A stretch of 64,000 bases of DNA from NCBI GenBank assembly GCA_009995045.1, contig JAACQG010000014.1:1-64000 (forward strand). Reading direction: 5' to 3'. The DNA is from Alphaproteobacteria bacterium (lineage in GTDB: Bacteria; Pseudomonadota; Alphaproteobacteria; Micavibrionales; Micavibrionaceae). Both the position numbers and the translations under genes were made by a program. The notes beneath the pieces were generated by a model. That model saw only the letters and a list, made by a program, of their open reading frames with translations, was not told where the DNA came from and did not search any database. Position 1 is the stretch's first letter, and every line of letters begins with the position of its first letter. Below, one piece after another: positions 35,105 through 57,587 of this stretch.

Positions 35105-35563
35105 ATGGACAAAAGATCTGAATTAAACGCCGCGATGAAAGATGCGATGAAGAATAAAAACCAAACAGCGCTCTCCACGATCCGCCTGATTACGGCTGCG
35201 ATGAAGGACCGTGATATCGCCGCGCGCGGCAATGGTAAGGCCGATGGTATCGAAGATGATGAAATCCTCTCCATGCTTCAATCCATGATCAAGCAACGCC
35301 AAGAATCAGCGCAAACCTATTGCGATGCGGGGCGCGAAGAACTGGCTGAACGTGAAGAAGCTGAAATTGAAGTCATCAAAAAATTCCTCCCCCAACAACT
35401 GGCTGAGGAAGAAGTAAACGCCGCCATTGAAAAAATCATTGCCGAGCAAGAGGCAAGCAGCATCAAAGATATGGGAAAAGTCATGGGCGTGTTGAAAAAA
35501 CAATACGCGGGTCAAATCGATATGGGCAAAGCCGGTGGCTTGGTAAAACAAAAGCTCGGCTAG
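35105..35563 (+). CDS. GatB/YqeY domain protein
   Basis: 152 residues from ATG 35105; an earlier in-frame start at 35039 adds a Lys-rich tail without family features. The block MDKRSELNAAMKDAMKNKNQ, STIRLITAAMKDRDIAARG and the C-terminal DMGKVMGVLKKQYAGQIDM are the YqeY family, related to the tail domain of the GatB amidotransferase subunit. Its role is not firmly known; a link to tRNA-dependent amidation or tRNA binding is assumed. Located before dnaG-rpoD as in many alphaproteobacteria. Confidence 0.93.
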   Translation: MDKRSELNAAMKDAMKNKNQTALSTIRLITAAMKDRDIAARGNGKADGIEDDEILSMLQSMIKQRQESAQTYCDAGREELAEREEAEIEVIKKFLPQQLAEEEVNAAIEKIIAEQEASSIKDMGKVMGVLKKQYAGQIDMGKAGGLVKQKLG

Positions 35564-35596: not shown

Positions 35597-35663
35597 AAAG
35601 CCCACGATGGCGAAGCAAACCGAAGGTTTGTTCGTAAACTTTTATAAAGTGCGGGCTTTTTTA
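35597..35663. terminator. compound hairpin between yqeY and the first tiny gene
   Basis: An inner 10-bp stem (35612-35621 with 35624-35633, one G-T pair) lies within an outer stem AAAGCCC/GGGCTTT followed by six T on the plus strand. It serves yqeY, and from the other side the tiny gene that ends at 35665. Confidence 0.75.
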
Positions 35664-35664
35664 T

Positions 35665-35784
35665 CTATGGTTTAATCAATTTCATGAGGCTTTCTTTAGC
35701 GTCGCGGACGATGTCCATCATGTTTTCGCTGTTTCCATACTCAATTAATTTAAGCTTGCTCGTTTCTTGAAAAATCTCTGGCAT
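35665..35784 (-). CDS. tiny protein 1 of the MP..F..IEYG pair (39 aa)
   Basis: A 39-residue open frame not called by ordinary length cut-offs. GGGAG stands six bases before the ATG, a TTGCGA/TATATT promoter with 17-base spacing is at 35828-35856, and a terminator follows the stop directly. The protein begins MPEIFQETSKLKLIEYG and has a Met/Lys-rich C-terminal helix. It shares MP-x-(I/L)-F and K-(L/I)-IEYG with the second tiny gene at 35953-36081. No signal peptide. Function unknown. Confidence 0.65.
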   Translation of the reverse strand: MPEIFQETSKLKLIEYGNSENMMDIVRDAKESLMKLIKP

Positions 35785-35827
35785 GCGTTACTCCCTGTTA
35801 CTACCGTTTTTTATATTACTTGACTAT

Positions 35828-35856
35828 AATATACACATAATAAGTGTTTATCGCAA
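35828..35856 (-). promoter_or_regulatory. promoter of tiny gene 1
   Basis: On the minus strand TTGCGA (35851-35856) and TATATT (35828-35833) are 17 bases apart, 44 bases before the start codon. Confidence 0.6.
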
Positions 35857-35942
35857 ATTTGATATATTAACACACTGATTTATATCTATAAAAAGGCTTT
35901 CAATAATCGTGGGTTTGCATAACATTTTTGATGCATCGCAAT

Positions 35943-35967
35943 AAAAAACCGCCTATTTGGCGGTTTT
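35943..35967 (-). terminator. terminator of tiny gene 2
   Basis: AAAACCGCC (35945-35953), five-base loop, GGCGGTTTT (35959-35967): a perfect 9-bp stem ending in a T run on the minus strand; it overlaps the stop codon of the tiny gene. Confidence 0.85.
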
Positions 35968-36081
35968 AAAAGTTAGGATTTTCCCGAAAAAGGCTAAAAT
36001 ATCTTTTAAAGAAAAATCGTCATGGGCATCATGACCATATTCAATGATCTTGAAGTCTTTTTTATCAAAAAGTGGCGGCAT
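35953..36081 (-). CDS. tiny protein 2 of the MP..F..IEYG pair (42 aa)
   Basis: A 42-residue frame with AAAGGA eight bases before the ATG, a TTGCTA/TAAAAT promoter (17-base spacing) at 36155-36183, and a strong terminator on its stop codon. It begins MPPLFDKKDFKIIEYG and continues with an acidic/His stretch and an amphipathic helix (LKDILAFFGKIL). The N-terminal half is related to tiny protein 1, so they are probably an ancient tandem duplication. Function unknown. The region 36082-36306 holds this promoter and that of dnaG. Confidence 0.65.
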   Translation of the reverse strand: MPPLFDKKDFKIIEYGHDAHDDFSLKDILAFFGKILTFKTAK

Positions 36082-36154
36082 TCATTATGTCCTTTAAACT
36101 CTCTATTATCACCAAGCACACAGCTCTAACGGCTGATTTGCTTATATTACCATT

Positions 36155-36183
36155 ATTTTATATGCGATATTATAACTTAGCAA
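36155..36183 (-). promoter_or_regulatory. promoter of tiny gene 2
   Basis: TTGCTA (36178-36183) and TAAAAT (36155-36160) on the minus strand with 17 bases between them. Confidence 0.55.
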
Positions 36184-36306: not shown

Positions 36307-38193
36307 ATGTCGATTCCGCCGCGCTTTTTGGATGATATCCGTAACCGTTTGACCCTCTCTGAGATCATCGGACGGCGCATCTCTGTGAAAAGAGCAGGCC
36401 GCGAATCCAAGGCCTGCTGCCCGTTCCACAACGAAAAATCACCATCCTTTACCATTAATGACGATAAACAATTTTATCATTGCTTCGGCTGTGGCGCGCA
36501 TGGCGATGTCATTGGCTTTGTCATGCAGCATGACAACGTCTCCTTCGTTGACGCCGTAGAAATGCTCGCCGCCGATGCTGGCCTCACCATGCCCAAGCCC
36601 GACCCAATGGCCGCAAAGAAAGCCGAGAAACAACGCGGCCTCCATGATCTCATGGATGAGGCAACATCATGGATGCAAGAACAGGCAAAAAAGCCGCAAA
36701 ATAACGACATTCTCGCCTATCTCGAACAACGCGGCATGGACGCGGATATCCGCAGCGGCTTCCGCCTCGGTTACGCCCCCGCAGATGGCCAAGCCCTGCG
36801 CAAGGCAATGCTGGCAAAAGGCTTCAGTGACACGCAAATGCTTGAGGTCGGCATCCTCAAGAAATCCCAAAAAGGCGGCGACCCATACGTATTCTTCCGC
36901 GACCGCGTCATGTTCCCCGTATCCGACAGACGGGGCAGGGTGGTCGCCTATGGCGGGCGTGTACTGCCCGAACATATCCGTCCATTGGATCCCAATAGCG
37001 ATTATAAACCGGCAAAATACATCAACTCCTCCGACACACCGCTCTTTGATAAGGGGCAAATGCTCTACGCCGAGAGCTTCGCCCGCCAAGCCGCGCGTGA
37101 AGGGCATACCGTGATCGTCACCGAGGGCTACATGGATGTCATCGCCTGTCACAAGGCTGGCTTCAAAGGCGCCGTCGCCCCCATGGGAACGGCCCTTACC
37201 GAAGAGCAAATCCTCTCCCTCTGGCAAATGATCCCCCCCGAAGCCAATAGAGGCGAAAAAAGCCCTATCCTCTGCTTCGATGGCGATAGCGCCGGACGCG
37301 CCGCCGCCGGACGCGCATGTCAGCGCATCTTGCCACTCATCAAACCCGATCAATCCGCCCGCTTTGCCTTTCTTCCCGATGGTGAGGACCCGGACAGCCT
37401 GATCCGTGGCCAAGGCGCAAACGCCTTCAAATCCTTCCTCCAAGCCGCGCTCACCCTGTTTGATTTTATCTGGGCGAGCCACACCGCCGGGCGCACATTC
37501 GAAACCCCCGAACAACGCGCAGGATTAGAAAAAGCGCTCTACGATGATGTCGCAAAAATCCAGGATACAAACATCCAGCGCCACTATAAAAACCTCGTGC
37601 GTGATAAAATCTCCGAAACATTCTTCCGCAGAAATGTCGGCGGCGGCAACCCGAATGCAATCCGCCCAAAGATGAAAAAACCAAACGCCCGCCCCAATGT
37701 TATCAAGCTGCGCAAACCCCAGCGCGGCAATCACGAGATCAAACACCGCATCCTCCTCGCTGCAGTGATCAACTACCCGCAGATATACGAAACAATCGAA
37801 GAAAGCTTTGGTGAGTTTGATATCGCAAACCCAACGCTTGCAAAAATACGCCAATCCATCATCATAACCCTCAGTGAAAATCCGGACCTTGACTTTGATG
37901 CTCTTCAATCCTATTTCGTTGATCAGGGGCTAGGTAAAGAAATCCGTGACATATGCTGCGAATCTGTATATGTTCACGCTGCTTTTTGTAGACCCGTCAA
38001 ACGCGGCGAATCTGAAGAGGATATTGATTACGGCGACATCGCGCAAAAATGGCTGGCACTCCGCGAGAGTATGAAATCCGGCATGATCGATGAAGAAATA
38101 CGCGATGGATGGAAACAAGCCATGCAGTCAGCCAGTCAGGATGAAGAAGCGAAGTTGAGTAATATGATTAAAAACCGCGGATCAGATGATTAG
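36307..38193 (+). CDS. dnaG: DNA primase
   Basis: Synthesises RNA primers for replication. 628 residues. Zinc-binding N-terminus: CCPFHNEKSPSF with YHCFGCG (residues about 37-64). RNA polymerase domain with GGRVLPEHIRP and KYINSSDTPLFDKG, then the TOPRIM segment VTEGYMDVIACHKAGF near residue 272 and CFDGDSAGRAAAGRA with the metal-binding acids. The C-terminal part is the DnaB-binding domain. It is followed 124 bp later by rpoD, the old macromolecular-synthesis gene order. Confidence 0.97.
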   Translation: MSIPPRFLDDIRNRLTLSEIIGRRISVKRAGRESKACCPFHNEKSPSFTINDDKQFYHCFGCGAHGDVIGFVMQHDNVSFVDAVEMLAADAGLTMPKPDPMAAKKAEKQRGLHDLMDEATSWMQEQAKKPQNNDILAYLEQRGMDADIRSGFRLGYAPADGQALRKAMLAKGFSDTQMLEVGILKKSQKGGDPYVFFRDRVMFPVSDRRGRVVAYGGRVLPEHIRPLDPNSDYKPAKYINSSDTPLFDKGQMLYAESFARQAAREGHTVIVTEGYMDVIACHKAGFKGAVAPMGTALTEEQILSLWQMIPPEANRGEKSPILCFDGDSAGRAAAGRACQRILPLIKPDQSARFAFLPDGEDPDSLIRGQGANAFKSFLQAALTLFDFIWASHTAGRTFETPEQRAGLEKALYDDVAKIQDTNIQRHYKNLVRDKISETFFRRNVGGGNPNAIRPKMKKPNARPNVIKLRKPQRGNHEIKHRILLAAVINYPQIYETIEESFGEFDIANPTLAKIRQSIIITLSENPDLDFDALQSYFVDQGLGKEIRDICCESVYVHAAFCRPVKRGESEEDIDYGDIAQKWLALRESMKSGMIDEEIRDGWKQAMQSASQDEEAKLSNMIKNRGSDD

Positions 38194-45324: not shown

Positions 45325-45433
45325 AGTGGTATAATTACCCTGTAAACCACTGCGTAAACCCTCTTAACATATTGAAACATAAAGATATTGTGAGGGGTTT
45401 TTGTAATTAGATAAAATTTTATGTATTATTATG

Positions 45434-57219: not shown

Positions 57220-57257
57220 TAATAGGTACTAAAGAAAAAAACATGTAAAATAAAGAT

Positions 57258-57587
57258 ATGAAACGCATTCTCAGCAATCAAAACAAAGATAAAAAAGCCG
57301 AGCTCCGTAAGCTCGTGCTCATACAACTGTCAAAAATGCGAACAAAAATGAAGCGCGAACATCCCGGAATGCTAGAAGGGCTGCGCGAAAAGATGGAGGC
57401 AAGTCAGCAAAATCAGGCGTCGCAACCATTCAAACCAACGCCGCCAGAAACGGCACAGGCAAAACCCGATCTCGCAATTGACCACGTCAAAAACAAAGAA
57501 ACCATCGAAAAAATGCTGAATTTAAAATCAGACAATCCCGGTTTTGAAAAAGCCGTAAAAGCAATTTTATCTAAACAGAAACATTAG
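57258..57587 (+). CDS. hypothetical basic helical protein
   Basis: 109 residues, very rich in Lys, Gln and Met, with predicted long helices (KKAELRKLVLIQLSKMRTKM; MLEGLREKMEASQQNQ) and a Pro-rich linker. No motif known. It is divergent from waaA and overlaps the 3' end of the convergent secreted-protein gene by 4 bp. The ATG lacks a good ribosome site, so its reality is moderate. Confidence 0.55.
   Translation: MKRILSNQNKDKKAELRKLVLIQLSKMRTKMKREHPGMLEGLREKMEASQQNQASQPFKPTPPETAQAKPDLAIDHVKNKETIEKMLNLKSDNPGFEKAVKAILSKQKH

What the first reader, a model, noticed from the sequence alone, without database searches (positions are those of the whole stretch)
35665..36183. Pair of tiny related genes of the form MP..F...(K)IEYG, each with promoter and terminator
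Two unreported-size frames (39 and 42 codons) lie in tandem on the minus strand in a 740-bp gap. Both begin MP-x-(I/L)-F and share K-(L/I)-IEYG near residue 15. Each has a good ribosome site, its own -35/-10 with 17-base spacing, and a hairpin terminator at its end. Chance would not give all of these twice. They look like an undescribed family of very small proteins, possibly regulators or membrane-active peptides (the C-terminus of the second is an amphipathic helix).
Basis: partly seen in the sequence, partly recalled or inferred. Interest (0 to 1): 0.8.

Follow-up and report, generated by a model that had tools for sequence, protein, structure and literature searches.

The report
New tiny protein family beside dnaG
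Two tiny neighbouring genes belong to a real, apparently unnamed family of roughly 40-amino-acid proteins that relatives of the predatory bacterium Micavibrio keep next to their DNA-primase gene; what they do is not yet known.

Summary
Both minus-strand frames (35665-35784, 39 aa; 35953-36081, 42 aa) are genuine genes. A profile of the family finds 39 copies in 32 of 105 genomes of the window's taxonomic family, which includes M. aeruginosavorus ARL-13 (itself a non-carrier), and no convincing copy in the other genomes searched. An exact DNA pattern in a collection of 84,980 species gave 27 stretches, 26 in the same lineage. The form is MPx(I/V)FxKNxKIxVIEYG, then a variable amphipathic C-terminal helix. 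Changes are strongly synonymous-biased. Where both flanks are on the contig, the genes lie between yqeY and dnaG, divergent from dnaG. A motif search recovers a shared TTGC-N17-extended -10 promoter; gene 1 is its best match in the window, gene 2 is weaker. Terminator hairpins follow 10 of 28 testable copies, 0.01 expected. Pfam, NCBIfam, PHROGs, PADLOC and PDB sequences give no consistent match. AlphaFold gives a C-terminal helix, no N-terminal fold. Best reading: a lineage-restricted cytoplasmic small protein whose N-terminus docks on a partner and whose helix binds membrane or partner. The mechanism is inference.

The parts
35665..35784 (-). small gene 1 (yqeY-proximal copy), 39 aa, MPEIFQETSKLKLIEYGNSENMMDIVRDAKESLMKLIKP
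35953..36081 (-). small gene 2 (dnaG-proximal copy), 42 aa, MPPLFDKKDFKIIEYGHDAHDDFSLKDILAFFGKILTFKTAK
35827..35856 (-). promoter of gene 1: TTGCGA-17-TATATT with TG before the -10, member of the motif shared by relatives
   Evidence: rank 1 of 127,942 with its own site left out of the model
36155..36183 (-). possible promoter of gene 2: TTGCTA-17-TAAAAT, weaker
   Evidence: rank 24 of 127,942; 36% of shuffles score as well
35791..35795 (-). ribosome site GGGAG of gene 1
   Evidence: sequence
36090..36093 (-). ribosome site AGGA of gene 2
   Evidence: sequence
35943..35967 (-). terminator of gene 2 (AAAACCGCC-AAATA-GGCGGTTTT, then T run), overlapping its last codons
   Evidence: sequence
35597..35662 (.). 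two-way terminator-like hairpin shared by gene 1 and the convergent yqeY (AAAGCCC...GGGCTTT around an inner hairpin)
   Evidence: read from the sequence; not scored by the scans
35105..35563 (+). yqeY, convergent neighbour
   Evidence: Pfam YqeY, E 4.9e-47; synteny
36307..38193 (+). dnaG (primase), divergent neighbour
   Evidence: Pfam Zn_ribbon_DnaG E 1.5e-35, DNAG_N E 6.5e-35; synteny

Best explanation
Shown: the two genes are members of a lineage-restricted family of about 40-aa proteins under purifying selection, held at the yqeY-dnaG locus, many copies with their own predicted promoter. Inferred: the product is a cytoplasmic two-part adaptor or regulator. Its nearly fixed first 17 residues (MPx(I/V)FxKNxKIxVIEYG), which do not fold alone in prediction, dock on one conserved protein partner, probably as an added beta strand. 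Its variable but amphipathic C-terminal helix, basic in most members though neutral in the window's two copies, holds it on the inner membrane face or packs against itself or the partner. After duplication in the window's genus each copy kept its place and probably took on its own expression timing or partner preference.
For: Family of 39 genes in 32 of 105 family genomes, 12 of 39 genera. M1 P2 F5 I14 Y16 G17 invariant over 34 aligned members, E15 at 91%. Rows were gathered with a motif filter that fixes most of these, but every gene found by the profile also passes that filter or shows the same form (G120 and G121). pS exceeds pN in every pair printed, e.g. G004_2/G007_2 with 13 synonymous and 1 non-synonymous change; codon-position identity there is 0.98/1.00/0.68. 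Two members keep the MP start with GTG in place of ATG. The tail's hydrophobic moment exceeds shuffles of the same residues, mean z 1.8 over 37 genes, 17 of 37 at p<0.05; mean tail charge +2.1. AlphaFold: helix 19-37 and helix 25-40 for the two window proteins, no N-terminal strand or fold, pTM 0.30 and 0.28, as expected for a docking peptide. Position-wise orthology of the two copies in six genomes: rank 2 of 32 label arrangements.
Against: No partner is known and nothing here shows translation. Membrane binding rests on amphipathicity alone; a heptad-like helix can also dimerise. AlphaFold confidence is modest. 20 of 37 tails do not reach p<0.05 for the moment, and 7 of 37, all in the window's genus and both window copies among them, have net charge 0 or below. 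In one close pair (G099/G100) the non-coding flanks are as conserved as the frame, 0.94 and 0.92 against 0.91. The gene is absent from many relatives, ARL-13 included, so the partner does not need it.
Confidence: 0.4

Rival explanations
1. Membrane-active or toxic peptide: an amphipathic PSM-like or type I toxin-like peptide acting on the producer's own or a prey cell's membrane.
For: Small size, amphipathic helix, tandem copies in one genus; one of 34 members gives a weak NCBIfam hit to a phenol-soluble modulin, E 0.1.
Against: The strongest constraint lies in the first 17 residues, not in the helix. With the promoter model, 23 of 37 genes have a sense site above 12 bits (17 of the model's sites come from this set) and 0 of 37 an antisense one over the gene or the 150 bases after it; the best antisense candidate of the window, at 35811-35840 (+), reaches 13.8 bits and 10.1. 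No export-signal program was run.
Confidence: 0.17
2. Local regulator of dnaG: the small protein binds primase or the shared divergent promoter region and couples primase level or activity to the growth phase.
For: In all 30 carriers with the dnaG start on the same stretch the gene is upstream of and divergent from dnaG (28, G120 and G121). In 27 of the 28 the nearest copy starts within 340 bp of dnaG (the other at 690), while the yqeY side takes inserts of up to 1.2 kb. [quoted passage not shown]
Against: Vertical inheritance at a conserved locus explains the synteny as well, and inserts may simply be better tolerated at 3' ends of genes. In G073 no dnaG lies within the 762 bp held upstream before the contig ends. 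No convincing shared operator beyond the promoter was found. Many relatives with dnaG lack the gene.
Confidence: 0.13
3. The conserved thing is an RNA (small RNA or dual-function RNA) and the frames are incidental.
For: Short predicted transcripts with own promoter and terminator; in G099/G100 the flanks are as conserved as the frame.
Against: Codon-pattern conservation and highly diverged synonymous sites; no Rfam family.
Confidence: 0.04
4. Precursor of a ribosomally made modified or exported peptide with a fixed leader and variable core.
For: Fixed N-terminus and variable C-terminus.
Against: The identified neighbours within about 1.5 kb are carA, yqeY and dnaG, though frames between the small gene and yqeY in some carriers were not identified; no fixed residue in the tail; the tail tends to keep helix amphipathicity rather than vary freely.
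Confidence: 0.04
5. Chance frames in an AT-rich gap.
For: Frames are short.
Confidence: 0.01

Closest known systems
Lineage-restricted small-protein families of the kind collected in the global smORF catalogue (PMC11364881; passages seen)
   Same: Under 100 codons, conserved in one lineage, no Pfam domain
   Different: This one spans 12 genera, has a sharply fixed 17-residue N-terminus, one fixed locus and a tandem duplication in one genus. Whether its members are already in that catalogue as unnamed clusters could not be checked.
Phenol-soluble modulins
   Same: Short peptide with an amphipathic helix
   Different: Conserved N-terminal non-helical motif; only 1 of 34 members gives a weak hit. 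General features of modulins are recalled.
Type I toxin peptides (Fst, Ldr, TisB and similar; recalled)
   Same: Size, own promoter and terminator, tandem copies
   Different: No antisense promoter by the model used, 0 of 37 genes; constraint lies in the N-terminus
Ketol-acid reductoisomerase IlvC N-terminus (KNKKVAVIGYG; enzyme name recalled)
   Same: Chance likeness to KNxKIxVIEYG behind several weak profile hits
   Different: Part of an enzyme of about 360 aa; read in two genomes only, E 0.077 and 0.095 there; rejected

Membership tests
Lineage-restricted small-protein family | Reading frame conserved across genera with excess synonymous change | tested here: met
   (12 of 39 genera)
Lineage-restricted small-protein family | No relative outside the lineage | tested here: met
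   these are samples and an exact pattern, so distant forms could be missed
Lineage-restricted small-protein family | Product is translated | not testable with these tools
   needs ribosome profiling or mass spectrometry
Named family in Pfam, NCBIfam, PHROGs or PADLOC | Profile match at a trustworthy E-value in most members | tested here: not met
   34 members scanned. Best: a PHROG without name E 0.0022 (1 member), PADLOC REase_II E 0.0057 (1), a PHROG 'antitoxin' E 0.02 (1), Pfam COMM_domain E 0.028 (1), NCBIfam IscR E 0.055 (1); the most members for any family is 3 of 34 (DUF2480, E 0.099)
Phenol-soluble modulin | NCBIfam model match | tested here: not met
   E 0.1 in 1 of 34 members
Phenol-soluble modulin | Cytolytic activity and dedicated exporter | not tested
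   no assay; only about 1.5 kb on each side was read in most relatives
Type I toxin-antitoxin | Antisense RNA overlapping the toxin transcript | tested here: inconclusive
   0 of 37 genes with an antisense site above 12 bits, but the model knows one promoter type and RNA was not measured; a plus-strand candidate at 35811-35840 is 5th of 127,942
Type I toxin-antitoxin | Toxicity on expression | not testable with these tools
   bench test needed
RiPP precursor | Modification or export genes beside the precursor | tested here: not met
   identified neighbours within about 1.5 kb are carA, yqeY, dnaG; inserts in some carriers were not identified

The most novel reading that the evidence does not exclude
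The family is a primase-directed switch: a 40-aa protein encoded back to back with dnaG that binds DnaG through its fixed N-terminus and holds it at the membrane, keeping replication off while these presumed epibiotic predators search for prey, with two copies timed to different phases in the window's genus.
Probability: 0.06. Interest if true: 0.85.

Novelty: new member of a known kind. Interest (0 to 1): 0.5.

Why it matters
It adds a well-supported small-protein family, named in none of the libraries searched, to a lineage whose sequenced isolate ARL-13 is an obligate predator (PMC3189940), at a locus next to a core replication gene. The fixed 17-residue motif is a clean bait for finding a partner. 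It also suggests that the yqeY-dnaG gap in this lineage repeatedly hosts small genes.

Tried and rejected
Tried without result: hmmscan of Pfam, NCBIfam, PHROGs and PADLOC and a PDB sequence search (only weak, inconsistent hits, best PDB E 0.49). Phage and plasmid tblastn (one weak hit each, E 6 and 8). Viral contig pattern scan (0). Rfam (three tRNAs only).

Rejected: two of the repeated weak profile hits in frames of about 360-390 aa were read and are ketol-acid reductoisomerase; the others were not read. The E 0.03 hit in G006 lies in a 421-aa frame. The best class-level hits outside the family, E 0.003 in a 522-aa frame and E 0.008 with two stops inside, are not small genes. The one Muribaculaceae stretch matches over 49 bases, that is with an 11-base gap, which is out of frame. 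The 38-aa neighbour gene in genus g29 is not a detectable homologue: 49 of 496 shuffles score as high. A shared operator beyond the promoter was not established: a 14-base motif beat its shuffles (59.5 against 37-41) but is degenerate and has no fixed place. Fold searches were not run, since a lone helix with pTM 0.3 gives meaningless matches.

Limits: one search's output was cut in the middle, so non-carrier loci are described only from the part printed. G006 has its dnaG at a contig end with 190 bp upstream, so its absence is not shown. Motif sets left out near-duplicates and short upstreams: 34 of 37 genes, 26 of 30 dnaG-proximal regions (there G073 and G106 too). The shuffled controls used fewer random starts than the real runs. 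Gene-level counts use 37 of the 39 copies (those of G120 and G121 left out). One search used six of the seven two-copy genomes (G004, near twin of G007, left out). The DnaG tree holds 84 genomes, has few columns and many open forks, lists G006 as a non-carrier and lacks G073. The promoter instances were picked by hand hits, so those ranks and counts are somewhat favoured.

Full report
Observation. The 743-base gap between yqeY (35105-35563, +) and dnaG (36307-38193, +; both named by Pfam) holds two minus-strand frames of 39 and 42 codons exactly as described. A degenerate pattern made from their common form matches the window only at these two genes and never in 100 shuffles.

Family. Single-sequence searches of 58 relatives already returned tandem pairs in the same genus and single copies in other genera. 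A profile of 20 members found 39 copies at E 1.1e-9 or better in 32 of 105 genomes of the taxonomic family (12 of 39 genera), with a clear gap to the next match at E 0.03. Seven of the 8 genomes of the window's genus carry the family, each with two copies; the eighth, G006, has its dnaG at a contig end. The other 25 carriers have one copy at that threshold. Outside the family the best match in the order search (143 genomes, the family included) is E 0.086; in a class sample of 385 genomes the best outside match is E 0.003 inside a 522-aa frame; in a phylum sample of 398 genomes only the window's own genome matches at E 0.01. The DNA pattern in the collection of 84,980 species gave 27 stretches: 26 in records titled Micavibrio sp. 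or Alphaproteobacteria bacterium, whose contig lengths equal those of genomes already seen in the family, and one in a Muribaculaceae record with an out-of-frame gap. Viral contigs gave none. One family genome, G079, has the length of M. aeruginosavorus ARL-13, 2,481,983 bp (PMC3189940, passages seen), which places the window in that predator's family; this genome gave no match and has 719 bp with other frames at the place. The family name Micavibrionaceae is recalled.

Coding. Nei-Gojobori counts on 37 genes show pS above pN in every pair printed (those above 60% nucleotide identity), for example 9 synonymous to 2 non-synonymous changes for G099/G100 and 13 to 1 for the yqeY-proximal copies of G004/G007. 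Codon-position identities for the latter are 0.98/1.00/0.68, with 0.70-0.80 in the flanking non-coding DNA. Not every pair shows that contrast with the flanks: G099/G100 has 0.94 and 0.92 in the flanks against 0.91 in the frame, G016/G118 0.83 upstream against 0.87. Two members begin with GTG in place of ATG yet keep the MP start.

Anatomy of the protein. Over 34 aligned members M1, P2, F5, I14, Y16 and G17 are invariant, E15 is 91%, K10 88%, K7 82%. The rows were collected with a motif filter that fixes most of these letters, yet no gene found by the profile fell outside it. The tail is variable in sequence but repeats hydrophobic residues at alignment columns 27, 30, 34 and 37-38, with K in 62% at column 31. 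Its helical hydrophobic moment exceeds shuffles of the same residues (mean z 1.8; 17 of 37 genes at p<0.05, both window copies among them). Its mean charge is +2.1, but 7 of 37 tails, all in the window's genus and both window copies included, have charge 0 or below. AlphaFold gives a C-terminal helix (19-37 and 25-40 in the two window proteins), no globular fold and no N-terminal strand (mean pLDDT 73.1 and 67.8, pTM 0.30 and 0.28). I read this as a docking peptide plus an amphipathic helix; the beta-strand docking is inference from the alternating pattern of residues 10-17.

Locus. Among the 30 carrier loci dnaG was found in 28 and yqeY in 29. The two without dnaG (G106, G073) end at a contig border; the one without yqeY (G035) shows its end in a longer stretch (L124). 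The two remaining carriers, G120 and G121, have the gene about 150 bp from dnaG. The small gene points away from dnaG and toward yqeY wherever these are seen. Of the 60 stretches fetched for, 6 are carriers; among the 54 others at least 10 have a collapsed gap of 33-89 bp and many have other inserts (output cut, so a lower bound; some end at contig borders). On a rough DnaG tree of 84 genomes the carrier label needs 10 changes against 25.3 in shuffles (0 of 500 as low), so inheritance looks largely vertical with repeated losses.

Expression signals. A motif search in 34 upstream regions recovered TTGC(A)-N17-TATGTATA (log-likelihood 136 against 62-72 in three shuffled sets that were searched with fewer starts; 20 of 34 regions score 12 bits or more). 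With the window's own site left out of the model gene 1's promoter is the best of 127,942 window positions and gene 2's is 24th; in the cruder shuffle test gene 2's site is unremarkable (36% of shuffles as good). With the same kind of model 23 of 37 genes have a sense site above 12 bits and 0 of 37 an antisense one. Terminator hairpins were found after 10 of 28 genes with enough downstream sequence, 0.01 expected; 9 genes were not testable.

Paralogues. In six genomes of the window's genus the dnaG-proximal and yqeY-proximal copies resemble their positional counterparts more than the other copy; the observed labelling ranks 2nd of 32. This suggests one duplication at the base of the genus, but the test is small.

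Function. The libraries searched name no such family. Constraint concentrated in a non-folding N-terminus with a helix that keeps mainly its physical character fits an adaptor or regulator better than a membrane-lytic peptide, whose helix should be the constrained part. A cis role at dnaG is possible but vertical inheritance explains the synteny as well. The papers listed by the searches do not, by title and abstract start, describe this family; two were seen in passages only (PMC3189940, PMC11364881).

Noticed in passing
L062:1267-1383 (-), and the same place in L122 and L123: In genus g29 a second 38-aa gene (MTNAYDKELNV...) follows the family member, with its own ribosome site and terminator, present in three genomes; not a detectable homologue and the G035 copy has no Pfam hit.
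   Followed up: partly
L074 (G064), yqeY-dnaG gap: Another genus has a tandem pair of similar-looking 102-aa frames in the same gap, same direction; one of the two was tested and has no Pfam hit. The gap may be a hotspot for small paired genes.
   Followed up: partly
L126 (G117), yqeY-dnaG gap: A 99-aa frame without Pfam hit lies between the family member and yqeY.
   Followed up: partly
window 45401-45430 (+) and 57248-57277 (-): The next best matches to the promoter model lie 41 and 29 bases upstream of longer frames, so TTGC-N17 with extended -10 may be a general promoter type of this organism.
   Followed up: no
window 35811-35840 (+): A plus-strand promoter-like site overlaps gene 1's promoter region and points across the 3' end of gene 2; 5th of 127,942 positions, not above 12 bits in the model and without such a site in the other genes.
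   Followed up: partly
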